DNA of 64,000 nucleotides from the NCBI GenBank assembly GCA_039654915.1, contig JBDJPA010000011.1, positions 1,364,001-1,428,000 on the forward strand. Direction: 5' to 3'. Shown here piece after piece: positions 34,672 through 51,296 of the stretch. Position numbers and translations under genes: made by a program. The first letter of the stretch is position 1; each line of letters opens with the position of its first letter. Under the pieces are notes generated by a model that had not been told where the DNA came from, did no database searches, and saw only the letters and a list, made by a program, of their open reading frames with translations. Origin of the DNA: Aquilaria yunnanensis. Taxonomy: Eukaryota > Streptophyta > Magnoliopsida > Malvales > Thymelaeaceae.

Positions 34672-34676
34672 CTAAT
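34672..34676. repeat. Target site duplication CTAAT, left copy
   Basis: CTAAT here and at 49679-49683 flank the element exactly where the LTR ends are set. Confidence 0.9.
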
Positions 34677-35869
34677 TGTGGCAATGTGACGGTCGTTTTC
34701 GGGAGTCGCCACCGATCGGTTTTCGCTTAGGTCAATTGGACACCTTAAAATTGGTCTGCGAGAGTTCGGGGGTTCGGGAGTACGGTTACGTTAAAACAAC
34801 TTTGTTAAAACGCCCAAAAATTGGTACCTTAGTTGATTTTAATTTTGTTTTGCTTTGCTTTTTTTAAAAAAAATATTCAGTTAATGTTCAAAACAGAAAT
34901 TTTAACTGAATTAGTCAGATGTGGATTTTTAAATTAATGTGGTTCTTCAAAATATTCAGTAACTAATTTGATAAAATTTGATATTTCCGAACCATGGACT
35001 CTGCCGAGTCACCCGGACACGGAATTTTAATGAAATTTTAGTTAATAGATCTAAAAATATACTTAAAAAAAATTTAATTTTTGTTTTATGAAATCGTTCA
35101 GTTATGATTTTTTTTTAATAAAGGAAAACAAAAGGTTAAACTTTTTTGTTACTTTGAAGGAATAAAAAGGATAAGTTTTAATATTTTAATTAGTGTTTAA
35201 AATAATAATAATAATAATATGTATTCCATATAATGATAAAGGGTGAAGGCTTTTGTTATAATAAAAATAATAAAATAAGAATAAAGTAAGGAAGTAAGAT
35301 GACCGTTGTAACCAACTAAAAATGGTACATAAATAAAATAAGGTTAATCACACACATAAAGAAAAAATGAAATTGCAGAAAAGTAAATAAATAAATAAAG
35401 TGGGGGCGTTTAACCATTTGTAGAAAAAGTAAATAAAGAAATGAATAAAGTGCAGAAATTAAATAAAGAGATAAATAAAGTGCAGGAAAATAAATAAATA
35501 GAGAAAAGTGGGGCGTTTAGCCGCCCACTTAAAAAAAATTCATAAATTAAATAATTGCAGGAGTTAAATAAATAAAGAAAAGTGGGGCTTTTTGGCCATC
35601 TACCTAAAAAAATAGGAGGTATAACCTTCCATGAAAAAAATAATAATAATAATAATAACAATAATAATAATAATAAAAGTTAGTTGCTAGTAAAGTTAGT
35701 AAAGTTAGTAAAGTTAATTGTTAGTAAAGTTAGTAAAGTTAGTTGTTAGTTCTGCAAAAATTAAAAGGTTAGTGATGATAATAATACTAATAATAATAAC
35801 AAAAATTAGTTAGTAAAGTTAGTTCTGCAAAAATTAAAAGGTTAGTGACCTGAATGGAATAATAATATC

Positions 35870-35914
<45 letters not shown>

Positions 35915-37455
35915 CATATAAAGATTATTTTTAGTTCTGCAGAAATAATAAAAAAAAGTTAGTGACTTGTATAAATGAAATAGAAAAAAAAAATTAGAGG
36001 ATTAAAGAGGAATTTTACTGTAAATTTAAATCGACTTTTAATCGAGGCGTAGGATCACGATCGGATTTGGCCTTTGATTTGATATCGCTCGACGGTGGAC
36101 GATTGGATTGACGACGGATGCTGTGCTTATTAAATGATTTTTTTTTGTTATTGTTTTGTAAGGTTTTTAGATGATTATCCAAACCATGGATCTTATCAGA
36201 CCACCCGGACATGGATATTATAACTTACTGGTTTGCGATTTGGATTTTCGTTATTTAATTTTAATTTTTTTTAATATCCAAACCATGGATCTTACCAGAT
36301 CACCTGGACATGGATATGATCCGTCTTAGAATTTTATCAAACCTACTAAGAACGGATTTGCAAACATTTAAATATTTCTTAACCAATAATTTGGTACACA
36401 TTTAATATATTACAAGAATGAAAATTAAACTATTCTAAAATCCAATAAATATACATGAATATACATATCAAATCAAAATCCTATATTGTTCTCCTATGTC
36501 AATTCAATGATCAAATTTAATGCAAGGTCAAACCAATATTAATAAAGAAAACAAAGAAAAGTATGAATAATGAAAATCTTGCTGTCAGGGGTTAATCTGC
36601 AACATAAAATATGTTAGTGACTTAAATGAACAAAACAAAGAAAGCTAAGGACTAAACAAGGATTTTACCAAAAAAAAGTAAAAGAACAGTCTTTGACTTA
36701 GTCAAAAACGAAATCTGTTCTTCGTCTTCGTCAATGGCTGGGAGGTTGCGACCGAGAGAACGATGGCGCAAGGGAGGCGGGACGCGAGGAGGTTGGAGCG
36801 GTGGCGTGGGAGGCTGGCAGAGCGTCGGACGGGGCAGCACGACGCAAGGGAAGAGCAGCAGCCCGAGCAGGAGGCTGGGCTGGAGACGCGAGGAAGAGGT
36901 GGAGCGGTGGCGCGGGAGAGGTGCGTGGAGCGGCAGCGCGACGCGAGGGAAGAGCAGCAGCACGAGCAGGAGGCTGGGCGCAAGGCGAGACGGCGAGGGG
37001 AGTCATCGGCGGGGGAGCTGGCCGGAGGGATGAGATGGCGGAGATGAAGGAGGAGGAGTGATTAGAGCAGAGAGGAGTCGGTGAGAAGGAGGGGAAGATG
37101 AGAAGGAGCTCTGTTCTGAGCTCTCTGTCTCTCAGAGAGTGGGATCGAGAGCAGAAAAGAAGGGGGGAAGAGAAGCTTTTGGAGAGCGCGAGAAGAGAGA
37201 GCCGTGTGGAAGTGAAAGAAGAGTTTTCTTTTCTTTTTTCTCTTTTTTTAATTATATACATATAGGTATCTATATATTATTTTTAACTAACCTTAAAATG
37301 CCCCCATAAGCTATTTAATTTTTAAATAATTTAATTAATTAATAATAATAATTAATTTAATTAATTTTTTTAATTTTAATTAATTAATTTTTTAAAATTA
37401 ATATTTTTTTTTATTTTTTTATTTTTTAAGGATCGGACGAAATTGGGTGTCAACA
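34677..37455 (-). repeat. 3' LTR (2779 bp)
   Basis: Downstream LTR of the minus-strand element. It contains AAT microsatellites (about 35640-35910), repeated AAGTTAGTAAAGTTAG phrases, and a GC-rich block at 36730-37100. In that block a 98-bp unit (GACGCAAGGGAAGAGCAGCAG at 36841, again at 36939) is duplicated relative to the other LTR. Open frames in the block, for example 36731-37258 on the minus strand, are low-complexity and lack domains. Confidence 0.92.
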
Positions 37456-37470
37456 GCTGCCCCCCTTTGC
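37456..37470 (-). other. Polypurine tract
   Basis: The minus strand reads GCAAAGGGGGGCAGC directly before the LTR start TGTTGACACC. Its position and purine content fit the plus-strand primer of reverse transcription. Confidence 0.85.
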
Positions 37471-37569
37471 ATGCTTCATGGGGCATGATGTATGCAAAGT
37501 CGTTACCAAATTTCGTCCGGCTTAGCTAGGCATTGAGGACCTTTTCGCCGCCTAAATCATGAGGTTATG

Positions 37570-38437
37570 GAATCCTCTTTAGAACCTTGACGATAGGAAC
37601 TCTCCTATCATTGAAAGTTTGAGTGAATGAGGTTAAGGAACTCTCCTTAGAACCTTTGCGATAAGAACTTTCTTATCGTTGAAGAAAGATTGATAATTGA
37701 TTATTTGAGGTTTAAGGAACTCTCCTTAGAACCTCGACGATAGAAACTCTCCTATCGTTGAAAGTTTGAGGTTAAGGAACTCTCCTTAGAACCTCGGCGA
37801 TAAGAACTCTCTTATCGTTGAAGAAAAATTGATAATTGATTGTTTGAGGTTTAAGGAACTCTCCTTGGAACCTCGACGATAGGAACTCTCCTATCGTTGA
37901 AAGTTTGAGGTTAATGAACTCTCCTTAGAACCTCGGCGATAGGAACTCTCCTATCATTGAAAGTAAAATTAATTGAATGAGGTTAAGGAACTCTCCTTGA
38001 ACCTCGACGATAGGAACTTTCCTATCGTTGAAAGTAAAATTGATTGAATGAGGTTAAGGAACTCTCCTTGAACCTCGATGATAGGAACTTTCCTATCGTT
38101 GAAAGTAAAATTGATTGAATGAGGTTAAGGAACTCTCCTTGAACCTTGAAGAGAGGAACTTTCCTATCGTTGAAAGTAAAATTGATTGAATGAGGTTAAG
38201 GAACTCTCTTTGAACCTCGACGATAGGAACTTTCCTATCGTTGAAAGTAAAATTGATTGAATGAGGTTAAGGAACTCTCCTTGAACCTCGACAATAGGAA
38301 CTTTCCTATCGTTGAAAGTAAAATTGATTGAATGAGGTTAAGGAACTCTCCTTGAACCTCGACGATAGGAACTTTCCTATCGTTGAAAGTAAAATTGATT
38401 GAATGAGGTTAAGGAACTCTCCTTGAATCTCGACGAT
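37570..38437 (-). repeat. 71-bp tandem array with two hairpins per unit
   Basis: About a dozen units follow one another; the last six (starts at 38050, 38121, 38192, 38263 and on) keep an exact 71-bp spacing and are nearly identical, while earlier ones are more variable. Each unit has two perfect or near-perfect palindromes: AGGTTAAGGAACTCTCCTTG with its AACCT partner, and CGATAGGAACTTTCCTATCG. The array lies just upstream of the PPT, so every genomic transcript would contain it. Function is unknown. Confidence 0.92.
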
Positions 38438-38947
38438 ATTTATACAAAAGCAATTGAAATCGAAATATCTTTCTTCGAAAGTGTGAATTTTCATAGCAGA
38501 CGTGTACAAAAATTTAGACTTCGATAAGATGAGTGAATCTTGATGATGACAATAACACTGACAAATTATGTAAAGGGAACGAATGTTTGGAATCAATATC
38601 CAAGGTTTCATCTAATATTTTCTTCAGTAAATATAGATTCCCTTGTGAGATATGTCATCCAAATAAGGTTGAAGCTTAACTACCCCAAAATGTCATGCCT
38701 AGTAGACCTAAGAGGATGCGTCTCAAGAGCAATTAAAATTACTCTTTACTCAGCCATTCCAACCTAAAGGTATTGTTCTATGGTTTTAATATCAGCATGA
38801 ACGAAACTATCTTATAAGATAACGAAATTCCCTGAAAAGAAAAACTGAAATACGAAAGAAAATGCTGATAATAAAACTAAAGGACAAGAAAAACAGATCG
38901 GATCGCTTCTTCTTCCACAATACTTCAACAGGGTGAGTAGAGGACAA
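38438..38947. other. Internal spacer between the LOG-like gene and the tandem array
   Basis: Probably the 3' flank of the LOG-like gene. No coding signal recognised. Confidence 0.4.
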
Positions 38948-39571
38948 TTATGGGATCAAACTGGTCGGGAAAGACTGTCGTGTCCAGTCTATCTGAATCA
39001 TTGCTGGATCTGGTTCAGGAACAAAAGCTTGCATTTTATCTAGCAATTCTTCAGCAGTTGTTGCGGATATTATGATTCGTCGTGCCACTCTTGATATGAA
39101 ATTCTTCTGCATAGCATAATCCACAAAAGCTATCAGACCTGTAAAGAAATTGTTAACATTCAACAGCCCAATGGGTTTCTTATGCAAATTAAGTTGGGCC
39201 ATGGAAGCAATTTGAAAGACTTCTCCCAATGTGCCAAAACCACCTGGTAGAGCGATAAAAGCATCAGCATTTAAAAGCATTTGTAACACACGCTCTTACA
39301 AATTTTTAACCACTAATTCTTCTCCAATCGTGCCCCCAGAAACAAATTTCAAAGGTCCAGGGATAATACCCAAAACTTGGCTTTCTCCTAGAGATGCTGC
39401 TGATGCTACACCTCCCATTAATCCAACACTACCTCCTCCATAAACTAAGTGTATTTTTTGCTCAGCTAATACCCTACCCAAATGGTTGGCTGCCTTTAAG
39501 TACTCTTCATCTTTTCCAGGAAAGGCTCCAGAAAATACACAAATACTTCAGGATTTGGAAGTTTTCTCCAT
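38948..39571 (-). pseudogene. LOG-like cytokinin riboside 5'-monophosphate phosphoribohydrolase, intronless, two stops
   Basis: One reading frame of 208 codons including the terminal stop matches a full-length plant LOG protein, the enzyme that releases active cytokinin bases from their ribotides. Seen in order: SICVFSGAFPGKDEEYL near the N-terminus, YGGGSVGLMG, GIIPGPLKF, and the family signature PGGFGTLGE within DAFIALPGG, then KPIGLLNVNNFF. Two in-frame stops break it, TGA at codon 8 (39548-39550) and TAA at 39293-39295; otherwise no frameshift was found. Known plant LOG genes have several introns, so this copy probably derives from a spliced mRNA. Length equals the family norm. A TATA box lies about 45 bases before the ATG. 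It is colinear with the retrotransposon and follows the cysteine-rich ORFs. Readthrough or reinitiation at a downstream ATG could yield only partial protein. Confidence 0.88.
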
Positions 39572-39611
39572 TCCTATCCTCATCCTTGTGAGAGAAGGAG
39601 AAAAAAGGATA

Positions 39612-39619
39612 TATTTATA
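39612..39619 (-). promoter_or_regulatory. TATA box before the LOG-like gene
   Basis: The minus strand reads TATAAATA, 41-48 bases upstream of the LOG-like ATG, with the 84-bp spacer repeats directly upstream. The arrangement looks like an independent promoter inside the element. Confidence 0.55.
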
Positions 39620-39639
39620 GAGATAAAGAGATAATTTTA

Positions 39640-39985
39640 TTTTCAAGAGTGGATATATTATTGTCGGAAAAGGAGAAAATTTTCAAAAGTGACAGTTATA
39701 CATATTAATCGTGACTATGACTCATGTCAGGAATGGGTACATTATCGTCAAAAGAGGAGAAAAATTTCAAAAGCAACTAGCATACACAGTAGTCGTGACT
39801 GTAGCTTACGTCAGGAGTAGGCACGTGATTGTCGGATGAGAAGGAAAATTTCAAAAGTGGCAACTATATACAGTAGTCATAACTGTACCTCATGTCAGGA
39901 GTAGGTACATTATTGGGAGGATAATTTCAAAAGTGACAGCTAGCATGTACAGTAATCGTGACTTTGGTCCACGTCTTCCACTGAT
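39640..39985 (-). repeat. 84-bp promoter-like tandem repeats with a TGACGTAAG box
   Basis: Phrases GTCAGGA, TACATTATYGTC, ATTTCAAAAG and ACAGTARTCGTGACT recur with about 84-bp spacing (GTCAGGA at 39726, 39810, 39894). Related text separates the cysteine-rich ORF copies at about 40720-40800 and 41540-41650. One unit reads TGACGTAAG on the minus strand (39805-39813), the core of as-1-type plant and viral enhancers. Other units have degenerate forms. Confidence 0.6.
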
Positions 39986-40025
39986 TTTTTTTTTTTTTTG
40001 CATCCAGTAATGGCTTCAATGCCTT

Positions 40026-40590
40026 CTATGAATCGGCGATTTGCATCCCATCCAGTTTTCTCACAAACTGGCAAACTTGGTCGTTTAAAGTCAGATTCCC
40101 AAGACTGTAACGATCTCGTTCTTTTTGGAGAATTATCCATAATCCAACAATCTCAAATTGCACTATTCCGCAAGAATGCGCTTCAAGAACCTCTCGGATA
40201 TCTTCCAGAGATTCCTTACGCAAGCCATTCTTAATGAATCTTATTCTATCATTACGATTTCTGGTGATCACTCCTGGAGAACGACATTTATTGCCGCAAA
40301 TCTACCATCCACAATTATGACAAACACCTAGCCTTTTTGCTCTTCTTTTTTTTGGCATAAGCGCTTTTACCAAAGCCGGGCATACGGGGAAAGAACGCTT
40401 CTGGAACTTCACCAGCTGAACGAACCTTAGCTTCGATTAGCCACCACATATTATCAAGAATGCCTTTGTGCATAAATACTCTGAATCGTTCACATCTAGC
40501 TTGATAAATCTTTTTAAGAACATTTATTGGGAAGGAAGGAAAATACTTTCGTAAGGCGGAAAGAAAAGACTCCATTGATGAATGAGACAT
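40026..40590 (-). pseudogene. Cysteine-rich basic ORF, copy 3 (viral nucleic-acid-binding-protein-like), broken
   Basis: Third and most damaged copy of the repeated small gene. The N-terminal part from the ATG at 40590 is open to 40315, but the frame changes in an A-rich tract near 40340-40360 and the cysteine block (C-x2-C...C-x3-C) continues in another frame with a stop inside it. The C-terminal part is open again to 40026. Strong similarity to the other two copies over the whole length shows all three descend from one gene by tandem duplication. It lies between copy 2 and the LOG-like gene, all on the same strand. Confidence 0.75.
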
Positions 40591-40683
40591 TTAAGAGAAA
40601 AAGAAAGAAATTAGTGATTGTAGGAAACGAAAATAACTGACTTTGAGAGTCATGGAGTACCGTATCCAGCAAGAAGAACACGC

Positions 40684-40690
40684 ATTTATA
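40684..40690 (-). promoter_or_regulatory. TATA box before copy 3
   Basis: TATAAAT on the minus strand 94 bases upstream of the copy 3 ATG, in a spacer shared with copy 2. Confidence 0.5.
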
Positions 40691-40839
40691 GTGATGAAAG
40701 GATAACGCGTTTATTACGCTTACAGAAGCAAGTACATTATTGTTAAAAGAAAAGAAAAATGACAGCTTATATGTACAGCAATCATGACTGTGGCTCTCAT
40801 CTTCTACTGGTTTATGTCCAGTAATGGATTCAATGCCTT

Positions 40840-41388
40840 CTATAAGTCGGGGATTTGCTTCTCATCCAGTTTTCTTACAAGCTGGCAAACAGGGTCATTT
40901 ACAGTCAGATTTTGGGGACTGTAACGGTCTCGTTATTTATGGTAAGTTCTCCATAAATCGACTATTTCGCATTGTACTATTCCACAAGAATGTGTTTCAA
41001 GAGTCCCTCGGATATCCTCCAGAGATTCCTTACGCAAACCATTCTTAATGAATTTTCTTTTATCTTCACGATTTTTGGAGATGTACCCTAAAGAGCGGCA
41101 CTTAGTATTGCAATTTCATCGTCCGCATTTATAACAGACATCTAGCCTATTTGCTCTTCGCTTTTTGGCATAAGCGTTTTTACCTAAGCCGGGCATACGA
41201 GGCATGAATGCATCTGAAACTTCACCAGCCGAACGGACCTTCGCTTCAATTATCCACTGCACATTGTTAGGAACGCCATTGCGTATAAAAACTCTGATTC
41301 TTTCACATCTAGCATGGTAGATCTTTTTAAGAACATTTATTGGAAGAAAAGGAAAGTACTTTCGCAGGATAGAAAGAGTAGAATCCAT
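40840..41388 (-). pseudogene. Cysteine-rich basic ORF, copy 2 (viral nucleic-acid-binding-protein-like), broken
   Basis: A 549-bp unit with the same total length and frame as copy 1. It is open from the ATG at 41388 to a stop at codon 91, which replaces the tryptophan of the cysteine block (CYKCGR, stop). A second stop lies further on. The basic stretch YAKKRRA before the cysteines is kept. The preserved length but broken frame indicates decay by point mutation after duplication. Confidence 0.8.
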
Positions 41389-41508
41389 TGATGAGAGAAG
41401 AATTTGAGGAATGAGGGAAATGACTCAGTTATTGTAGAAAACTGAAATAACCGACTTTAGAAGTCACAGAATACCGTATCCGCTGCTTAATCGGAAAGAA
41501 GAACACGC

Positions 41509-41515
41509 ATTTATA
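41509..41515 (-). promoter_or_regulatory. TATA box before copy 2
   Basis: TATAAAT on the minus strand 121 bases upstream of the copy 2 ATG, within the repeated spacer that also carries ACCGTATCCGC and GAACACGCA phrases shared with the other units. Confidence 0.5.
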
Positions 41516-41677
41516 ATGATGAAAGGATAATGTGTCGATTACACTTCCGGGAGCAAGTACATTATTGTCAAAAGAAAATGTAAATTTTTCCAAATATGAC
41601 AAATTGTATGTACAATAATTGTGACTGTGGCTCACATCTTCCACTGGTCTTATGTCCAGTAACGGCATTAACGGCTT

Positions 41678-42226
41678 CTATGAGTCGAGGATTTGTTTCC
41701 CATCCAGTTTTCTTACAAGCTGGCAAACAAGGTCGTTTACAGTCAGATTCCCGGGACTGTATCATTCTCGTTCTTCATGAAAAATACTCCATAAACCAAG
41801 AAGTTCACGTTGCACAGATCCACAAGAATGCGTATCAAGAGTCAATTGGATATCATCCGATGAGTCCTTACTCAGGTCATTCTTGATGAATCGTATTTTA
41901 TCTTCTTGATTATTAGAGATCATTCCTAAAGAACGACATTTAGTATTACAAGTCCACCGTCCACATTTATGGCAGACTTGTAACCTTTTTGCTCTTCGCT
42001 TTTTGGCATAAGAGCTTCTGCCTATACCAGGCATGTGAGTCACAAATGCCTCTGGGATTTCACCTGTTAGACGAACCTTAGCTTCGATTAACCATCGTAC
42101 ATCTTCAAGGATTCCTTTGTGCATCAAAACTCTTAATTGTTCACAGCGAACTCGGTAGATCTTTTTGAGGATGTTCATTGGGAGAGAAGGAAAATATTTT
42201 CGTAAGGCAGAAAAGGTAGGATCCAT
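41678..42226 (-). pseudogene. Cysteine-rich basic ORF, copy 1 (viral nucleic-acid-binding-protein-like), nearly intact
   Basis: Best preserved copy: open for 154 codons from the ATG at 42226, then one TGA (41762-41764), with the frame continuing to a shared stop at 41678. Residues 75-81 are KKRRAKR, and cysteines at 85, 88, 93 and 97 form C-x2-C-x4-C-x3-C, preceded by GIGRSSYA. The order glycine-arginine, tyrosine, basic run, CxxC is the signature I recall for the small cysteine-rich proteins at the 3' end of carlavirus-like genomes (Pfam Carla_C4 and Viral_NABP), which bind nucleic acid and in several viruses suppress RNA silencing. The N-terminal helical half is also of that type but longer. 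Viral origin and function are inference; an unrelated zinc-binding protein of the retroelement is the alternative. Confidence 0.7.
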
Positions 42227-44010
42227 TTTTTAGAGGGAAGTAAAAGAAAGAATGGAGGAAGAATCAGTTATTATGGGCAACTAAGAGAACCGACTTGAGA
42301 GTCACGGAGTACCGTATCCGCCGCTTAACCGGAAAAGTGGATCCTACTTTATTTTGATGTGATTGATATTTCTTATCTTTGATATTCCATCCAGCTGACG
42401 TCGATCCAGTCCTTGATTATTGAATCCATTGTCCACTTTTGACAAAGTTTTCAACGACAATATTTCTTGATGTCCGCCTTATCTTTGACCATAGCTATCT
42501 CTTATCTTGGATACTGCTAAGCTGGCACCAATCTTTTCCTTCCAAGTGTAGCCTCGATTATTGAATCAATTTCCAGGCTTTTGACAATATTGTCTACTTT
42601 ATCATTGAATTCCTGATGGGGTTGATTCCAGCGTATTAGCTGTGCATCCAGTAATATATTGGTAAGAGCTGATATCATTGAGGTCTCAGCTTATACTGCT
42701 GTAACTGTGCCGTGGATGTGCTTCCCATTTGATCCCTGTCATGTAAAAGCCATGCATGTATGATGTGAAATGCATGAATGCAGAGCATGCGTAATTGATG
42801 GTTCCTTTTTTTTGTTTTGGATTTTTTTTTTATGGATCTAGTTCTTCATATCTTTGCTTTACTGGATCTTCTTTATGATTGCCTTCTTGGACTATCATTG
42901 AATCTCTTTATGCTTTCCAGCTTTTGTTCATTGCCTCAAAAGCCCAACTCTTTTCAAAAATCCCCTTTCTTTGACTTGTTCTTTAAATTTTGGCCTCAGC
43001 TTCTTTAATGTTTGCCCGCCTCATACTTTATGCCTTTCTTTGGGTACTCATCCCTTGTCATGGATTTCATAGCATCGAAGGCTTAACTTTCAATGTCTGC
43101 CCTTTTTCTTGTGTCCGGGCTTACACATACTTATCCCCATGTTATAATCTGAATGATTGCTCTTCCTTAAACTCAAGTTTTGCTCCATAAGACTTGCCCC
43201 CTTTGTTTATTGAGCTTCTTCATTGACAGTACTCTTCTAACGCTTCATAGAGAGTACTTTGCCCCCCTGAATATGGTGTTTATGTGGATAAAAGGTATCA
43301 TCTCGCCTTTGATTTAAAAGAAGGTCGAGCATTTCTAGACCTTTGTGATGGCCCTCAATCGTGAATTTCTCTTACAAGAATCACATCTTCTTAAAGAATG
43401 TCTCAAGCTATCTCCTCACTTTTAAGTCTACACACATTAATGAATAATGGTTTGGCCTTAAAGAAAAACTTTCATCAATTTGCAAAGCTTGAAAAAGTAA
43501 TTTACGGTCTTTGTCTTTAATTAAAATGTCCTGTCATTCTTCCCCTTTCCAACTCGAAGACATAAACTATACAAGGCAATAAGATAGAAACGTAATTCAT
43601 AATGATAGTTTTTTTATGAATGAGGATGATATCAAGAGGTAAATGTTAGGTCTGAGGAAAGTTAAGTTTGAGTGGTGTGAAAGAAGGGTCTTTTAATACT
43701 ACTCGTGAGCATATCTAATTACGGTGAAAAATTCAATAGTGAAGACCTCAAACTTGCCACCTTTTCCAGAAAGTTAGACCTCATCTGTTGCCCCCCAACT
43801 ATTGTAATCTTTATGTACGCTTGGTTTGAGGGTTTCTTTTGTCTTCTAAACCGCCTTTGCAGGTTTTCAGTCTAGAATCCATAGCTCACTTTTTTTTTTC
43901 TTTTGCTTTAACTTAAGCCTCTTTTTTTTTTGTTTATTTTTTTTTTGTTGTTGTTGTTTTTTTTTTTGTGTGAGCTATGGTGATGACATACTTGATAACT
44001 CTATTGAAAT
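42227..44010. other. Internal region of the retrotransposon, no domain recognised
   Basis: This lies between the cassette and the gag side, where pol would be expected in an autonomous element. No PR, RT, RH or INT motif could be read in any frame; open frames are short. A second purine-rich tract (GTTGGGGGGCAAC on the minus strand, about 43787-43799) resembles a PPT without an LTR behind it. Confidence 0.5.
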
Positions 44011-44320
44011 GAGATGACTCAAGTGGCTTTGCTTGCTCGTGCTTGCTCTCTGTCTCTTTTTTTGGTTTTGAATTTTCCCTTGTTGCCTTTTGATGGAAGG
44101 GATGAACTTCTTTTCTTTTTGGAGTTTGTGTTGCGGAGAACCGAGATTATAGCCTTCTTGAAGTGAGATGACTCAAGTGGATTTACTTGCTTGTGCTTGC
44201 TCTTAGTCTCTTTTTGTTTTGGATTTGAATTTTCCCTTGTTGTCTTTTGATGGAAGGGATGAACTTCTTTTCTTTTTTGAAATTTGTTTTGCGGAAAACT
44301 GGAACATTTTTTTTTTGTGT
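44011..44320 (-). repeat. 154-bp tandem duplication
   Basis: GAGATGACTCAAGTGG occurs at 44011 and at 44165, followed by closely similar text (GATGGAAGGGATGAACTTCT in both). A lysine-rich minus-strand frame at 44019-44357 spans both copies and owes its internal repetition to the duplication; it has no recognised domain. Confidence 0.85.
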
Positions 44321-44935
44321 TGAGCATTTGTGAGAATTGGGAGGCGACTGAAGTCATTTAATATGAGAGCTACCTTCTTTGGAAGCTAACCCGAGACTTC
44401 TTGTAAGAATGTTGATAACCACTGTGAATTCTTTTTTTTAGAGTTGAGGTGCAAACATTTGAAATCCTTCTTACTAGATTTGGCAGCACTTTCAAGGTCA
44501 CTATTATCAAATCTCCCTTAACTTTCATTTTTACCCACGAGTAGTATCTTTTACAAAGTAAAATTTGATGGCAATAATGGGTAGTGTAATGGCAAAGAGT
44601 GAGAGATAGATGTAAAAATGGAATTTTTGGTAAAGAGTGGTAGAATGTGTGGATGTAAAAATTGAATTTTAGGTAAAAAGTGGTAGAATGCACACATTAC
44701 ATCTTTTTGTTGTACCAGAAAAAAGAATACCAAGTGTCCATTTAACAAAGACTACACCCTAGATTCTGGACTAAATCTAGGAGATTTTTACTATTAGATT
44801 ACTTTGACAAGCTCTCAAAGATGTAAGTTTAGTAAAAGGATTCCCTGTCATTCAAAAGTGTGTGCGAACTGTTAGGTCAGATCTAACTTGGAGCTCTTCC
44901 AAAATCAATGTAATTCCAGCTCGAAATCTTCACTT

Positions 44936-46230
44936 TCAATTACCAATCACATCATGGCCTAGGAATTTGGACTCGACCAACTGTTGGACCCTGAGTTTCA
45001 GTGTCACACAATTTTCAGTTGAATGCCCAATTGAGCCTATATGATATTTGGCATTTGGGTCATACCAACTTGGAAGAGGAGGCCATTTGATCTTTGCTAC
45101 CGTTGGTATGGGTGGTAGCAGGTTTGTAGCTTGTGGAAATTGAATCGACTTGAGTAGCTTTCTTCCCATGAGTGGTATGTAGTACTGATGAGGGAGCCTT
45201 GAAGATTATAGTCTCAAAAGGATGTCCTTTCACTTGTAACGTGAGTGGTATTGGACCATAGGACTTGGAGATGATGTTTCGGACAACTCCGCTTCTTCAT
45301 TGAAACATCGTCCAATTGAAGAATCGACCAGCTTTCCTGTTTTAATTTCAAATTCAATCTTTTCTCCAGATAACACCATATTTGAAAAGCTACTTGAAGT
45401 GTTCCCAACTAGTTTTTCATAAAATGGTCTATTTAGTGTTTGGATAAACAGGGTGATCCGTTCTCTTTCTATCATAGGTGATTGAACTTGTGCAGCTAAA
45501 TTTTTCCACCTTTGTGCGTACTCCTTAAAGGTTTCTTGTTCCTTCTTCTTCATATTTTGGAGAGTTTGGTGATCCGGGGCCAAGTCCATAACATGCTTGT
45601 AGTTATTGATAAAGGCCTGAGCAAGGTCATTCCAAGTTTTGATGTTTCTTGGACCTTAACTTAGATACTACTGTAATGCTGATTTTGTAAGAATTTCCTG
45701 AAAAAGTGCAATCCACACCTTTTCGTCTTTTGCGAGTGGTTGTAGTCTTCTTAGAAACAACGTGATGTGAGTGACGGGATCGCTCGTTCCATCATATTTC
45801 ATGAAGTTTGGCACCTTGAAGTCTGAAGGAATCACAACGTCTGGCATCAAGCAAAGATCGTTCACCGAAAGAGATCCAAATACAGTGCCTCTTTTAATGG
45901 CCCGAAGTCTCTTTTCTATTGTTCTCAAGTTTTTTTTTTTTGTATCCTCTTCTTCTTTAAGTAGCGGCTTCTTTTATTCAAAAATGGGATTGTGCTTTAG
46001 ATGAATCTTATCAGATGGGCCTGAGTCGTGAAAGAGCTTCTCTTGAACTGAGACCCGTTGTTGAGTGAATCCAGGAGGATAGGTGGGATCTTGTGGTTCT
46101 TTGATGGGAACTTGGGTTACTTTCCCCTTAATTAGCTCCCTTAATTGTTTTCATTTGGTCGGCCATGCTTTTTATCTTGGACTCCATATCTATGATACGA
46201 CCTTCGGTTTGCTCTGCCATTAGTCTTATT
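44936..46230 (-). pseudogene. Decayed gag of a Tat/Ogre-type Ty3-gypsy retrotransposon
   Basis: Separate open pieces on the minus strand follow the order of a plant Tat-type gag. 45668-45928 has PDVVIPSDFKVPNFMKYDGT and DEKVWIALFQEILTKSA. 45230-45589 has EQETFKEYAQRWKNLAAQVQ, ERERITLFIQTLNRPFYEKL and the FSNMVLSGEKIE segment. 44936-45169 has WYDPNAKYHIGSIGHSTENC, the usual Tat gag C-terminal cysteine/histidine module, here with a cysteine lost (YHIGS instead of YHxG after CxY). Stops and frame changes separate the pieces, so no working Gag is made. Its place next to the 5' LTR and its strand agree with the LTR orientation. Confidence 0.85.
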
Positions 46231-47074
46231 TGGAGCCGAGTTGAATATTGGTGTTGAGGTCCAATTTTACCTTTTTTAAAGTAAGATTTATTTTATTAGA
46301 CTCTACATGTATGTGATTGATGTAATGTATGCATGCAATGAGTGAGTTTGATTATCTACTATTGTGGAACTTTAAGACTTCTAGTTATTATTAGAAAGAC
46401 CAAAAAGTTAGCATAGTTTGATGCGTGGTTTTGATGCATGAAGAATAATTGCACAGAACAGAAGTATAACAAAAGAAAAATAAGGTTATTAACAAGTTAA
46501 ATAGCAATTAACAACTCATGAACTATTATGAAAAAATGAATTAAAATCATAAATATAAGACACTAAAAAAATAAAAGTGTAGAGCAACAACATAGCATAA
46601 CAAGGACATGCTTATGGCGTTGGTAAATGGGAGGAATACTATGGTCAGTTCTATGGTTAAGTGGGGAGTTCTATATGCATAGGGTGGTTTATCAAAAGGC
46701 CGAGGGTAGTTCCCGAATCCCATCACTAAATTATAGTGACAGCCCAATTCCTTACCCTCTAGGGTTTATGTAAGGAAAGGATTAATTCGAGTCGTAGCTT
46801 TTCGTGGGCCCATGCAGAGACTAACCGTCTCAGGAGGCAATACACTACTTTGCTACTTTGAAACCGATGAAGGCTTGGAGACCATGGCCTCATAAGGACA
46901 ACAACACCAATTCCGCTTAGAAAGAACGTGTTCGATTTGAGGAAGCTCGAGTATAGAGCTTCATGTCGTGAATGCATTATGCATGTTTACTTAAGTAGAT
47001 ATAGCACATAAATCCACATAAAATAAGCAAAGCAGAACAAAACAAATCAACTTTTAGGCTTGACTCACTAACCG
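46231..47074 (-). other. Untranslated leader of the retrotransposon
   Basis: Sequence between the PBS-like site and gag. Short open frames (for example 46759-46977) have no domain. Confidence 0.5.
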
Positions 47075-47097
47075 GGTCCCCAGTGGAGTCGTCAAGC
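47075..47097 (-). other. Primer binding site-like stretch
   Basis: Directly after the 5' LTR the minus strand reads GCTTGACGACTCCACTGGGG followed by ACC. The ACGACTCCACTGGGGAC core resembles the stretch found at this place in Tat/Ogre-type elements, usually attributed to a tRNA-Arg primer. The tRNA match itself was not tested. Confidence 0.55.
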
Positions 47098-49678
47098 TGT
47101 GGCAACGTGACGGTCGTTTTCGAGAATAGCCACCAATCGGTTTTCGCTTAGGTTGATTGGACACCTTAAAATTGGTCTGCGAGAGTTCGGGGGTTCGGGA
47201 GTACGGTTACGTTAAAACAACTTTGTTAAAATGCCCAAAAATTGGTACCTTAGTTGATTTTAATTTTGTTTTGCTTTGCTTTTTTTTAAAAAAATATTCA
47301 GTTAATGTTCAAAACAGAAATTTTAACTGAATTAGTCGGATGTGGATTTTTAAATTAATGTGGTTCTTTAAAATATTCAGTAATTAATTTGATAAAATTT
47401 GATATTTCCGAACCATGGACTCTGCCGAGTCACCCGGACACGGAATTTTAATGAAATTTTAGTTACTAGATCTAAAAATATACTTAAAAAAAAGTTAATT
47501 TTTGTTTTATGAAATCGTTCAGTTATGATTTTTTTTTTATAAAGGAAAACAAAAGGTTAAACTTTTTTGTTACTTTGAAGGAATAAAAAGGATAAGTTTT
47601 AATATTTTAATTAGTGTTTAAAAAAATAATAATAATAATATGTATTCCATATAATGATAAAGGGTGAAGGCTTTTGTTGTAATAAAAATAATAAAATAAG
47701 AATAAAGTAAGGAAGTAAGATGACCGTTGTAACCAACTAAAAATGGTACATAAATAAAATAAGGTTAATCACACACATAAAGAAAAAATGAAATTGCAGA
47801 AAAGTAAATAAATAAATAAAGTGGGGGCGTTTAACCATTTGTAGAAAAAGTAAATAAAGAAATGAATAAAGTGCAGAAATTAAATAAAGAGATAAATAAA
47901 GTGCAGGAAAATAAATAAATAGAGAAAAGTGGGGCGTTTAGCCGCCCACTTAAAAAAAATTCATAAATTAAATAATTACAGGAGTTAAATACATAAAGAA
48001 AAGTGGGGCTTTTTGGCCATCCACTTAAAAAAATAGGAGGTATAACCTTCCATGAAAAATAATAATAATAATAATAATAATAAAAGTTAGTTGCTAGTAA
48101 AAGTTAGTAAAGTTAGTTGTTAGTAAAGTTAGTAAAGTTAATTGTTAGTAAAGTTAGTAAAGTTAATTGTTAGTTCTGCAAAAATTAAAAGGTTAGTGAC
48201 CTAAATGGAATAATAATAATATCAATAATAATGATAATAATAATAATAATAATAATAAACATATAAAGATTATTGTTAGTTCTGCAGAAATAATAAAAAA
48301 AAGTTAGTGACTTGTATAAATGAAATAGAAAAAAAAAATTAGAGGATTAAAGAGGAATTGTACCGTGAATTTAAATCAACTTTTAATCGAGGCGTAGGAT
48401 CACGATCGGATTTAGCCTTTGATTTGATATCGCTCGGCGGTGGACGATTGGATTGACGACGGATGCTGTGCTTATTAAATGATTTTTTTTTGTTATTGTT
48501 TTGTAAGGTTTTTAGATGATTATCCAAACCATTGATCTTATCAGACCACCCGGACATGGATATTATAACTTACTGGTTTGCGATTTGGATTTTCGTTATT
48601 TAATTTTAATTTTTTTTAATATCCAAACCATGGATCTTACCAGATCACCTGGACATGGATATGATCCGTCTTAGGATTTTATCAAACCTACTAAGAACGG
48701 ATTTGCAAACATTTAAATATTTCTTAACCAATAATTTGGTACACATTTAATATATTACAAAAATGAAAATTAAACTATTCTAAAATCCAATAAATATACA
48801 TGAATATACATATCAAATCAAAATCCTATATCGTTCTTCTATGTCAATTCAATGATCAAATTTAATGCAAGGTCAAACCAATATTAATAAAGAAAACAAA
48901 GAAAAGTATGAATAATGAAAATCTTGCTGTCAGGGGTTAATCTGCAACATAAAATATGTTAGTGACTTAAATGAACAAAACAAAGAAAGCTAAGGACTAA
49001 ACAAGGATTTTACCAAAAAAAAGTAAAAGAACAGTCTTTGACTTAGTCAAAAACGAAATCTGTTCTTCGTCTTCGCCAGTGGCTGGGAGGTTGCGACCGA
49101 GAGAACGATGGCACAAGGGAGGCGGGACGTGAGGAGGTTGGAGCGGTGGCGTGGGAGGCTGGCAGAGCATCGGACGGGGCAGCACGACGCAAGGGAAGAG
49201 CAGCAGCACGAGCAGGAGGCTGGGCGCAAGGCGAGACGGCGAGGGGAGTCACCGGCGGGGGAGCTGGCCGGAGGGATGAGATGGCGGAGATGAAGGAGGA
49301 GGAGTGATTAGAGCAGAGAGGAGTCGGTGAGAAGGAGGGGAAGATGAGAAGGAGCTCTGTTCTGAGCTCTCTGTCTCTCAGAGAGTGGGATCGAGAGCAG
49401 ATAAGAAGGGGGGAAGAAAAGCTTCTGGAGAGCGCGTGAAGAGAGAGCCGTGTGGGAGTGAAAGAAGAGTTTTCTTTTCTTTTTTCTCTTTTTTTAATTA
49501 TATACATATAGATATCTATATATTATTTTTAACTAACCTTAAAATGCCCCCATAAGCTATTTAATTTTTAAATAATTTAATTAATTAATAATAATAATTA
49601 ATTTAATTAATTTTTTAAAATTAATAATTTTTTTATTTTTTTTATTTTTTAAGGGTCGGATGAAATTTGGTGTCAACA
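47098..49678 (-). repeat. 5' LTR (2581 bp)
   Basis: Upstream LTR of the minus-strand element, colinear with 34677-37455. It lacks the second 98-bp GC-rich unit and has shorter AAT runs, which explains most of the 198-bp length difference. Scattered substitutions between the two copies (for example GGGAGTCGCCACCGATCGG against GAGAATAGCCACCAATCGG) record time since insertion. Confidence 0.92.
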
Positions 49679-49812
49679 CTAATATTAATTAGAAACATAA
49701 GATATAAAATTATTTAGGAAAACACAAACCTTTTAAAAATATATTTAGGAAAAATGGGTTAGTGACAGCCTGATATCAACCATGGAGTTGATTTGCGTGA
49801 TTCTTAAAAATT

Positions 49813-51296
49813 GGGTAAAATCCAACGGGGGTCACCTAGCTTATTTTTTTGTCCTAAACAGGTACCTTACCTTCAAATTGTCCTACCGAGGTACCTTACT
49901 TCTTATTGCGTGTCCCATCTGGGTACTTTCCGTTGATTCCATCGTTAAGTCTCACGGAAATTGCTGACGTGGCATTAATTAATGCTACAATAAACGTAAA
50001 ATAACAACTTTGGACCCTAAACTTTTCCAACCACTAATTCTAAACCTAAAATTTACAAATCTAACACCTAAATCACTTTTTTTTGTTGGATCCACCAACA
50101 TCTCCTTTTACCCGCCTGATTCTCTAAGTGAATCCAAAACCAGATCTAAAATAATAAAAGAAAAGCCAATAAATCTTTCCAGAAATAACAATCAGAACTA
50201 ATACGACTTTGTTACTAAAATTTCCAGTATCACTATCGTTGAAATTCGGCCATCTCTCTTGCGCCGCCGAATCGGAGCTCACCAGAAATGTCACTGCAAA
50301 GAATACTGAATCGCTGCCCTGCTCTCGTCATGTTCTGGGCTTCCGGTTATGAATTCGCCACAAAACTACGTCTTTGTCCATCAATCGCACCAACTGAGCC
50401 GGCTTTATCCACACCTAGCGTGTTACCCCCTTCAACTCCTGTTCTTGTTCTTCTTGCTCCTTTGGAAACACGTGGTCGATTGTTCTGGCTTTGACAGCAA
50501 CGAGGCAATTTCTCGAGATGGAATTGAAATGAAATTGGGAAAGACTTGAACTTTGAACCTTAACCCCTCATTCCTCATCGCCTTTTCCATCTCCCCCCGT
50601 CTCCTCAAGTTCCAATTCGGCACCCACATAGTGACAGCGCCTTCAAGTCCCTCTGTTCCCCTTGATCGCTTCGATAGCGACCACGGTGACAGCGTCGATC
50701 TCAAGGGTTTCAGGTTGGATACAACGCGGACAGAGGCAGGTTGGTGCGAGTTTAGGATTTGGAAAGATCGAAGGATCTGATGAACAAGAAACAACTCCGA
50801 TTCTGATGGCTGATCGGAGCTCCCAACGGTGGCAATGGTGGCGGAGAGAGAGGTAGAGCGCGGCGGAGGGAGAGATCGGGGGGCGGCGAAGGGAGATGTT
50901 GGGGGCGACGGAAAAGGGAGGACGATGAGGATGAATCGGAGGACAAATCGGAGAATACTGCGGAGGACGGGGAGGACGACATAGAGGTCGAGGGCGGCTG
51001 GGATGGTGGGCGACAGAGGAAGAGGTTGACGGTGGCTAAAATGATTTTGGTGGAAGTTTAAGGGTTAGAATTAGTTATTAGAAAAGTTTAGGGTCCAAAG
51101 TTATTATTTTACGTTTATTGTAGCATTAATAAATGCCACGCCAGCAATTTCCGTGAGACTTAACGATGGAATTAACGGAAAGTATCCAGATAAGACACGT
51201 GATAAGAGGTCAGGTACCTCGGTAGGACAATTTAAAGGTAAGGTACCAGTTTAGGACAAAAAAATAAGCTAGGTGACCCCCGGTGGATTTTACCCC
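49813..51296. mobile_element. Pack-MULE-like element with exact 9-bp target duplication
   Basis: The left end GGGTAAAATCCAACGGGGGT and the right end, read on the other strand, GGGGTAAAATCCACCGGGGG begin arms that match for over 200 bases, including GACGTGGCATT/GGCGTGGCATT and AACTTTGGACCCTAAACTTT. TTAAAAATT occurs exactly at 49804-49812 and 51297-51305. The interior (about 50220-51060) is GC-richer than its surroundings and has open frames on both strands (50432-50794 minus, 50553-50780 plus) without recognised domains; it looks like captured gene sequence. It lies 135 bp from the LTR retrotransposon. Confidence 0.85.

What the first reader, a model, noticed from the sequence alone, without database searches (positions are those of the whole stretch)
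34677..49678. Pol-less 15 kb LTR retrotransposon carrying a multi-gene cassette
Ends, target duplication, PPT and PBS define one element beyond doubt, yet the place of pol is taken by four colinear small genes: three related cysteine-rich ORFs and a LOG-like gene. Cargo-carrying LTR elements with single captured exons are known in plants; a tandem cassette of whole genes with their own TATA-bearing spacers is, to my knowledge, unusual. The absence of pol and the decayed gag imply trans-mobilisation by an autonomous Tat/Ogre relative.
Basis: partly seen in the sequence, partly recalled or inferred. Interest (0 to 1): 0.9.

Follow-up and report, generated by a model that had tools for sequence, protein, structure and literature searches.

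The report
Jumping gene carrying virus-like genes
A plant jumping gene of the Ogre type carries three genes resembling a defence-suppressing protein of plant RNA viruses and one gene for a hormone-activating enzyme; the copy in this window is a worn, incomplete member of a large family whose fuller members carry the same set alongside their normal machinery.

Summary
The element is real: 34677-49678, minus strand, LTRs 2.5% diverged, 5-bp duplication CTAAT, decayed gag, no pol. But the cassette does not replace pol. Three fetched relatives in the same 842-Mb genome, with LTR pairs 98.2-99.9% identical, read LTR - PMD/DUF7745 ORF - gag-pol - three cassette genes - LOG - tandem repeats - LTR. 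Ten of ten sampled pol places carry all four genes, open, at nearly the same distance downstream. The window copy belongs to a dispersed pol-less subfamily (5 of 5 examined lack pol).

The three 'cysteine-rich' genes are homologues of the nucleic-acid-binding proteins of carlavirus-type RNA viruses (Carla_C4, Viral_NABP), 182 aa when open, as in Populus, Acer and Xanthoceras. The fourth is a LONELY GUY cytokinin-activating enzyme. dN/dS among open copies is 0.15-0.30 in 16 of 17 pairs: the genes are selected while moving with the element. LOG in LTR elements is published (PMC9289625); NABP cargo I did not find in the held library. I judge it a new variant of a known kind: an Ogre family with an RNA-virus-like counter-defence plus hormone module. 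The function is inferred, not shown.

The parts
34672..34676 (.). target-site duplication CTAAT (left)
   Evidence: direct reading; repeated at 49679-49683
49679..49683 (.). target-site duplication CTAAT (right)
   Evidence: direct reading
47098..49678 (-). 5' LTR
34677..37455 (-). 3' LTR
37456..37468 (-). PPT-like purine tract aaaggggggcagc next to the 3' LTR
   Evidence: direct reading
47072..47097 (-). PBS region next to the 5' LTR (tRNA not identified)
   Evidence: direct reading; tRNA match not tested
44960..46274 (-). decayed gag (Retrotrans_gag)
   Evidence: 2.1e-9; tblastn with the gag of a pol-bearing relative
43040..44935 (-). 1.9-kb filler of the pol-less subfamily; no tblastn match to pol
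   Evidence: 40 of 2358 candidates scored; matches at 40 places incl. the window; only a 67-79-bp DNA match to pol-bearing copies
42351..43039 (-). non-coding stretch shared with the pol-bearing relatives, between pol and NABP1
   Evidence: 76-77% to L020, L023, L026
42290..42332 (-). conserved leader upstream of NABP1, shared with L001
41681..42226 (-). NABP1: virus-type nucleic-acid-binding protein gene; stop at 41762-41764
41509..41515 (-). TATAAAT box upstream of NABP2
40843..41388 (-). NABP2 (early stop in this copy)
40684..40690 (-). TATAAAT box upstream of NABP3
40029..40575 (-). NABP3 (change of frame in this copy; its pieces do not match Pfam NABP models on their own)
   Evidence: open relative
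39613..39619 (-). TATAAAT box upstream of LOG
38951..39571 (-). LOG: LONELY GUY-type cytokinin riboside monophosphate phosphoribohydrolase (two in-frame stops in this copy)
37565..38440 (-). tandem repeats (mostly 71 bp) between LOG and 3' LTR

Best explanation
The window holds an old, pol-less member of an abundant Ogre-type (Tat) LTR retrotransposon family. Pol-bearing relatives in the same genome encode a PMD/DUF7745 ORF, gag-pol, then a sense-strand cassette NABP1-NABP2-NABP3-LOG, then tandem repeats and the 3' LTR. Shown: shared architecture, joint movement, recent insertions, purifying selection on open cassette genes. Inferred: (1) the pol-less subfamily is moved by the pol-bearing one's proteins, since it keeps LTR ends, 5' untranslated region and gag-related sequence; (2) NABP2, NABP3 and LOG are made from their own internal promoters (TATAAAT boxes), NABP1 from a pol-linked or spliced RNA; (3) the NABPs act like the virus proteins they resemble, binding nucleic acid and blunting RNA silencing of the element; (4) LOG releases active cytokinin and so favours dividing, meristem-like cells, where a new insertion can reach the next generation. 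My confidence is about 0.95 for the anatomy, about 0.45 for step 3 and about 0.35 for step 4.
For: Pol-bearing copies: domains; LTR identity 99.7, 99.9 (over the parts held) and 98.2%; RT piece: 40 of 1209 candidates scored, all 40 shown as 100% identical. Cassette: 40 of 3609 candidates scored, all 40 matched (window plus 39 at 90-93%); 10 of 10 sampled pol places (of the 40 listed) carry NABP1-3 and LOG with open frames; of the best 150 of 8182 NABP candidates 142 have no stop. Different target duplications: CTAAT (window), GGATG, GGTCC, TTATT (pol-bearing cassette copies), CATGT (C3:8.59 Mb, LTRs and filler found, cassette not checked). dN/dS: NABP paralogues 0.27-0.30, same gene between copies 0.15-0.23, against L001 0.16-0.22; LOG 0.15-0.22. 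Pfam at E<=0.01: 38 of 39 members match Carla_C4, 37 of 39 Viral_NABP. Foldseek: the best three viral matches are all named RNA silencing suppressor (weak E). LOG keeps PGGFGTLGE. TATA boxes at near-constant places.
Against: No expression, protein or activity data. One of 17 pairs (NABP3, L020 against L017) has dN/dS 0.57 at dS 0.05; only open genes entered that test, which favours low values. The NABP1 start is out of frame in L023, one of the three pol-bearing copies fetched, and gag-pol frames are interrupted in some copies. The zinc-finger spacing (C-X2-C-X4-C-X3-C) differs from that given for a carlavirus (C-X2-C-X9-C-X4-C, PMC3689765, passage). The structure model is poor (pLDDT 65, pTM 0.35) and no Foldseek E-value is below 0.04. 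A match to a virus family does not show silencing suppression. Genome searches score and list only the best candidates, so copy numbers are bounds and the open fraction is biased upwards. At C4:44.03 Mb filler and LOG lie only 1.6 kb apart, too little for three NABPs: some copies may carry fewer; not examined. Trans-mobilisation rests on shared ends only.
Confidence: 0.7

Rival explanations
1. One reading: a pol-less element in which a four-gene cassette was inserted in place of pol.
For: In the window copy only filler lies between gag and the cassette; the pol-less form is itself multi-copy.
Against: Pol-bearing copies carry the same cassette downstream of pol; the stretch 42351-43039 just upstream of NABP1 is shared with them.
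Confidence: 0.03
2. The cassette genes are passive host or virus fragments copied along by chance, without use to the element.
For: All four genes are broken in the window copy, and each of the three other pol-less copies with the whole cassette in one piece (L011, L014, L017) has at least one shortened gene; plant LTR elements are known to pick up host genes (PMC7264820, passages).
Against: dN/dS 0.15-0.30 in 16 of 17 pairs, all four frames open in 10 of 10 sampled pol-bearing places, 182 aa also the commonest length among the listed relatives in other plants, conserved TATA boxes.
Confidence: 0.07
3. The NABPs are not silencing suppressors but nucleocapsid- or movement-like proteins that package or chaperone the element's RNA, standing where env-like genes stand in Athila elements and retroviruses (position of env recalled).
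For: Basic stretch plus four cysteines (KKRRAKR then C-X2-C-X4-C-X3-C); position between pol and 3' LTR; in L001 the gene follows an integrase ORF by 0.2 kb.
Against: TATA boxes of their own for two of the three, unlike a gag-linked nucleocapsid; best viral matches are proteins named silencing suppressors, though that name is by annotation and the match is weak.
Confidence: 0.25
4. Direction of transfer reversed: the NABP family is native to plant LTR elements and RNA viruses took it from them.
For: Large family (995 proteins at E<=10 among 4320 candidates; best 120 listed, virus proteins not separated), found in Ogre-type copies here and behind an integrase in L001.
Against: No rooted tree with virus sequences could be built here.
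Confidence: 0.35

Closest known systems
Ogre elements of the Tat clade (PMC6317226, passages seen)
   Same: Second RNase H between RNase H and integrase, PMD domain in an extra ORF, 5-bp target duplication
   Different: A sense-strand NABP x3 + LOG cassette is not mentioned in the passages that I read
LTR elements with a YgdH (LOG) domain in Citrus and Populus trichocarpa (PMC9289625, section 12 read in full; it cites Steinbauerova et al. 2011, not held; recalled as Athila-like elements with LOGL4 similarity)
   Same: A LOG-type gene carried by Gypsy-type elements of eudicots
   Different: No NABP genes are mentioned in that section; here LOG is the last gene of a four-gene cassette in an Ogre-type family
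Phalaenopsis Gypsy elements with an AlkB-type 2-ODD ORF (PMC9289625, section 12 and passages)
   Same: Large Gypsy elements with an accessory RNA-acting gene of a kind also found in flexi-type RNA viruses
   Different: Different gene, single ORF, reported there only from two Phalaenopsis species
Cysteine-rich / nucleic-acid-binding protein of carlaviruses (PMC3689765, search listing and passages)
   Same: Pfam families Carla_C4 and Viral_NABP, basic motif followed by a four-cysteine motif
   Different: 182 aa with a long N-terminal part predicted helical; other cysteine spacing; three tandem copies in an LTR retrotransposon
Retand elements with antisense TRP28 ORFs (PMC11963269, abstract and passages)
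   Same: Tat clade, extra ORFs and tandem repeats between pol and 3' LTR
   Different: There the ORFs with known domains are antisense, mostly TRP28; here they are sense and virus- or hormone-related

Membership tests
Ogre (Tat clade) LTR retrotransposon | additional RNase H between RNase H and integrase (PMC6317226, passage) | tested here: met
   pol-bearing relative: RT_RNaseH in L022:8288-9998, RVT_3 at 11-121 and rve at 287-384 of L023:1-1719; cannot be tested on the window copy, which has no pol
Ogre (Tat clade) LTR retrotransposon | plant mobile domain in an extra ORF (57% of Ogre elements, PMC6317226, passage) | tested here: met
   L019:2981-4696 PMD 3.4e-9, DUF7745 6.2e-56; no match to this ORF in the window
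Ogre (Tat clade) LTR retrotransposon | 5-bp target-site duplication | tested here: met
   five insertions read, five different 5-bp duplications; two further places could not be read
Ogre (Tat clade) LTR retrotransposon | PBS of the Ogre type | not tested
   sequence read, no tRNA set at hand
Ogre (Tat clade) LTR retrotransposon | place in an RT tree with reference Ogre and Retand elements | not tested
   no reference RT sequences fetched; the choice of Ogre over Retand rests on the PMD domain
Carla_C4 / Viral_NABP proteins | score above the Pfam gathering cut-off | tested here: met
   window NABP1 26.7 (cut-off 20.9) and 24 (23), window NABP2 28 (23) but 18.9 (20.9) for Carla_C4; window NABP3 pieces do not match, NABP3 of L020 does, 26.6 (23) and 21.9 (20.9)
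Carla_C4 / Viral_NABP proteins | carlavirus zinc-finger spacing C-X2-C-X9-C-X4-C (as given for PVH, PMC3689765, passage) | tested here: not met
   C-X2-C-X4-C-X3-C in all three NABPs of L020
Carla_C4 / Viral_NABP proteins | similar fold | tested here: inconclusive
   model pLDDT 65, pTM 0.35; top three of 13 viral matches are silencing suppressors, E 0.04-0.54, TM at most 0.25
Carla_C4 / Viral_NABP proteins | suppression of RNA silencing | not testable with these tools
   needs an assay
LONELY GUY phosphoribohydrolase | Lysine_decarbox domain and PGGxGTxxE motif (motif recalled) | tested here: met
   Searches (1.7e-25 for the longer window piece; 1.7e-30 in L020), PGGFGTLGE, PDB relatives At2g37210 and At5g11950
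LONELY GUY phosphoribohydrolase | enzyme activity | not testable with these tools
   the window copy has two in-frame stops and is presumably dead

The most novel reading that the evidence does not exclude
NABP and LOG form a long-lived accessory module that circulates among plant LTR retrotransposons of different clades (Ogre-type here, an Athila-like integrase, by recall, in L001) and shares its suppressor-type gene with flexi-type RNA viruses, so that these elements fight host silencing and steer host cell division with genes like those of exogenous plant viruses.
Probability: 0.4. Interest if true: 0.9.

Novelty: new variant of a known kind. Interest (0 to 1): 0.75.

Why it matters
It would tie together three things studied apart: silencing suppressors of plant RNA viruses, hormone manipulation, and the success of giant Ogre elements. 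A retrotransposon family that keeps a virus-type suppressor homologue in triplicate and a cytokinin-activating enzyme under purifying selection makes it directly testable how plant LTR elements escape RNA silencing and reach germ-line cells. It also offers a source, or a sink, for the cysteine-rich proteins of flexi-type viruses. Practically, many LOG and 'viral nucleic acid binding' gene models in plant annotations may be retrotransposon genes.

Tried and rejected
Virus contig scans with the NABP and with its alignment found no relative. The one genome-contig scan gave one locus, L001, a 3.3-kb contig filed under a bacterial MAG that I read as plant contamination. PDB by sequence with the NABP profile: four chains at E<=1, best 0.094, none taken as a relative. 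First structure model poor (pLDDT 59), second 65; the fold search is therefore only a hint. A tree of 122 NABP rows did not resolve NABP1-3 against other plants; its window row was mis-framed by my slice and is disregarded. A tree of 65 LOG rows (60 of the 120 listed relatives, the LOG of L020, two Arabidopsis and two bacterial proteins) puts the family's LOG among multi-copy plant LOGs apart from those four, but holds few host LOGs, so it does not date the capture. A hairpin reading of the leader looked weak by eye and was not pursued. Rfam: nothing at gathering score.

Literature on NABP in LTR elements, held library only: searches gave 0 papers; one search gave 2, one opened and off topic, one not opened; one search gave 99, of which 20 were listed, and none of those titles bears on it; I opened none of them newly for that, and the top row (PMC12389679) holds all four terms and was not opened. 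LOG: one search gave 0, one search gave 22 of which only PMC9289625 was opened, one search gave 0.

The idea that the cassette is a separate later insertion was rejected, since the relatives examined have it at the same place.
Full report
Observation. The element is as described: 15.0 kb on the minus strand, LTRs at 47098-49678 and 34677-37455 with 63 differences in 2581 aligned sites (K2P 0.025; about one million years at the recalled rate of 1.3e-8 per site and year, which may not suit this plant), CTAAT on both sides, and a purine tract before the 3' LTR. gag is broken; tblastn with the proteins of pol-bearing relatives finds only gag in the whole window at E 1e-3.

The genes. Three tandem copies 814 and 838 bp apart encode proteins that match Pfam Carla_C4 and Viral_NABP, the nucleic-acid-binding proteins of carlavirus-type and related RNA viruses (window NABP3 only through an open relative). 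The fourth gene is a LONELY GUY-type cytokinin riboside monophosphate phosphoribohydrolase. In this copy all four are damaged: one stop in NABP1, an early stop in NABP2, a change of frame in NABP3, two stops in LOG.

Relatives in the same genome. The window lies in an 842-Mb genome held in 345 contigs. The NABP cassette: 40 of 3609 first-look candidates were scored and all 40 matched, the window plus 39 places at 90-93%. LOG: 40 of 2584 scored, 94-97% apart from the window itself. I took six cassette places with 30 kb each. Three (L019-L021, L022-L024, L025-L027) hold between gag and the shared stretch before NABP1 about 6.6 kb that the window lacks. Open frames there carry gag, G-patch, RVT_1, RT_RNaseH, RVT_3, integrase zinc finger and rve, and a 572-aa ORF with DUF7745/PMD precedes gag (Pfam was run on pieces of L019, L022 and L023 only). 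Their LTR pairs are 99.7, 99.9 (over the parts held) and 98.2% identical. In L020 and L026 all four cassette frames are open; in L023 the start of NABP1 is out of frame. The other three (L010-L012, L013-L015, L016-L018), like the window and C1:78.23-78.24 Mb (L038, L039), have gag, a 1.9-kb filler and the cassette, and no pol match inside the element (L012 was not put to tblastn; the RT match in L015 and the weak integrase match in L010 lie outside the element). So 5 of 5 copies of that form examined lack pol. In each of L011, L014 and L017 at least one cassette gene is shortened. The filler alone: 40 of 2358 candidates scored, matches at all 40 places.

Does pol always come with the cassette? 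An RT piece of the pol-bearing form: 40 of 1209 candidates scored, all shown as 100% identical. From those 40 I chose 10 places on eight chromosome-size contigs and fetched the stretch 2.9-6.7 kb downstream. All 10 hold NABP1, NABP2, NABP3 and LOG in the same order with open frames, at the same distance to within about 25 bp. A NABP protein search listed the best 150 of 8182 candidates; 142 of those 150 have no stop, a sample biased to good copies. Not every copy need carry three NABPs: at C4:44.03 Mb filler and LOG are only 1.6 kb apart, which I did not examine.

Movement. Target duplications: CTAAT (window), GGATG, GGTCC, TTATT (the three pol-bearing cassette copies), and CATGT at C3:8.59 Mb, where LTRs and filler were found but the cassette was not checked. 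Two further places (C1:78.23 Mb and C5:25.43 Mb) could not be read, because their 5' ends were not found in the fetched pieces. The LTR search shows paired hits 11-18 kb apart on several chromosomes.

Selection. Nei-Gojobori dN/dS on open frames as they stand, 17 pairs: NABP paralogues of one copy 0.27-0.30; the same NABP between copies 0.15-0.23 with one exception of 0.57 at dS 0.05; against the NABP of L001 0.16-0.22 at dS above 1; LOG 0.15-0.22. Broken genes were not measured, apart from the shortened window NABP1. Every NABP measured is 182 codons long except the window's NABP1 at 154; 182 aa is also the commonest length among the listed relatives.

Other plants. Named NABP relatives: Populus x canadensis and P. 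alba (182 and 145 aa rows), Xanthoceras sorbifolium, Rhamnella rubrinervis and Acer yangbiense (182 aa), Orobanche gracilis and O. hederae (176 aa). LOG relatives: 35 of the 120 listed rows (of 7850 at E<=1e-10) are Reevesia pubescens genes on 16 chromosome numbers, others Paulownia, Populus, Diplodiscus, Xanthoceras. L001 holds an integrase ORF followed 0.2 kb later by a 182-codon NABP on the same strand; no RVT_3 match was found in the 118 residues before its integrase zinc finger, where Ogre and Retand have the second RNase H, and by recall its sequence is Athila-like. Its integrase region is 31% identical (142 of 451) to that of a pol-bearing copy.

Expression signals. TATAAAT stands 127 nt before NABP2, 115 nt before NABP3 and 40 nt before the LOG start in L020, and upstream of the same genes in the window. 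In six further copies checked it was found for LOG in 6, NABP3 in 6 and NABP2 in 5 (in L037 my pattern did not find NABP2); NABP1 of L020 and of the window has none within 400 nt. The leader of NABP1 resembles that of L001 far above shuffles (score 34 against a maximum of 13 in 60 mononucleotide shuffles; NABP2 17 against 13; NABP3 12 against 12 and LOG 8 against 12 are not above), although synonymous sites between the two genes are near saturation (dS 1.15). I cannot say what it does.

Virus link. At E<=0.01, 38 of 39 aligned members match Carla_C4 and 37 of 39 Viral_NABP. A Foldseek search with a poor model lists RNA silencing suppressors of Fig latent virus 1, Potato virus H and Grapevine Kizil Sapak virus as its best three of 13, none below E 0.04. 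For the carlavirus Potato virus H the protein suppressed local silencing in preliminary results (PMC3689765, passage from the abstract). The cysteine spacing differs. I therefore say homologue, not proven suppressor.

Literature. LOG (YgdH) domains in LTR elements of Citrus and Populus are in print (PMC9289625, section 12). PMD and second RNase H as Ogre features: PMC6317226, passages. Retand extra ORFs: PMC11963269, abstract and passages. NABP in LTR elements: nothing relevant seen, 81 of the held library, which lacks most subscription papers.

Conclusion. The finding is real and more interesting than stated, but differently: not a pol-less curiosity, but one worn copy of a large Ogre-type family with a virus-like counter-defence (by homology) and hormone module.

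Noticed in passing
L011:7630 to L012:10000 (C8:84.12-84.13 Mb): The repeat that spans under 1 kb in the window runs for over 12 kb, to the edge of the fetched piece, in this relative (about 69-bp units), as if a satellite array were growing out of the element.
   Followed up: no
window 49813-51295: Inverted repeat of 245-nt arms, 91% complementary, 993 nt apart, right beside the element: a TIR or foldback element.
   Followed up: no
window 43040-44935: Filler of the pol-less subfamily with internal repeats and no pol homology by tblastn; source unknown.
   Followed up: partly
LTRs of window and pol-bearing copies (L019, L022, L025): The window LTR matches those of the pol-bearing copies mainly over about 350 bp at the end next to the PBS (78-82%); most of the rest has diverged beyond recognition.
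   Followed up: partly
window 42290-42332 and L001:1670-1745: Non-coding leader of NABP1 conserved with L001 far above shuffles while synonymous sites are near saturation.
   Followed up: partly
G000 C4:44.026-44.031 Mb: Filler and LOG only 1.6 kb apart on the same strand: a copy with fewer NABP genes?
   Followed up: no
L001: A contig filed in a Nomurabacteria MAG looks like plant retrotransposon DNA by content, i.e. a contaminated bin.
   Followed up: partly
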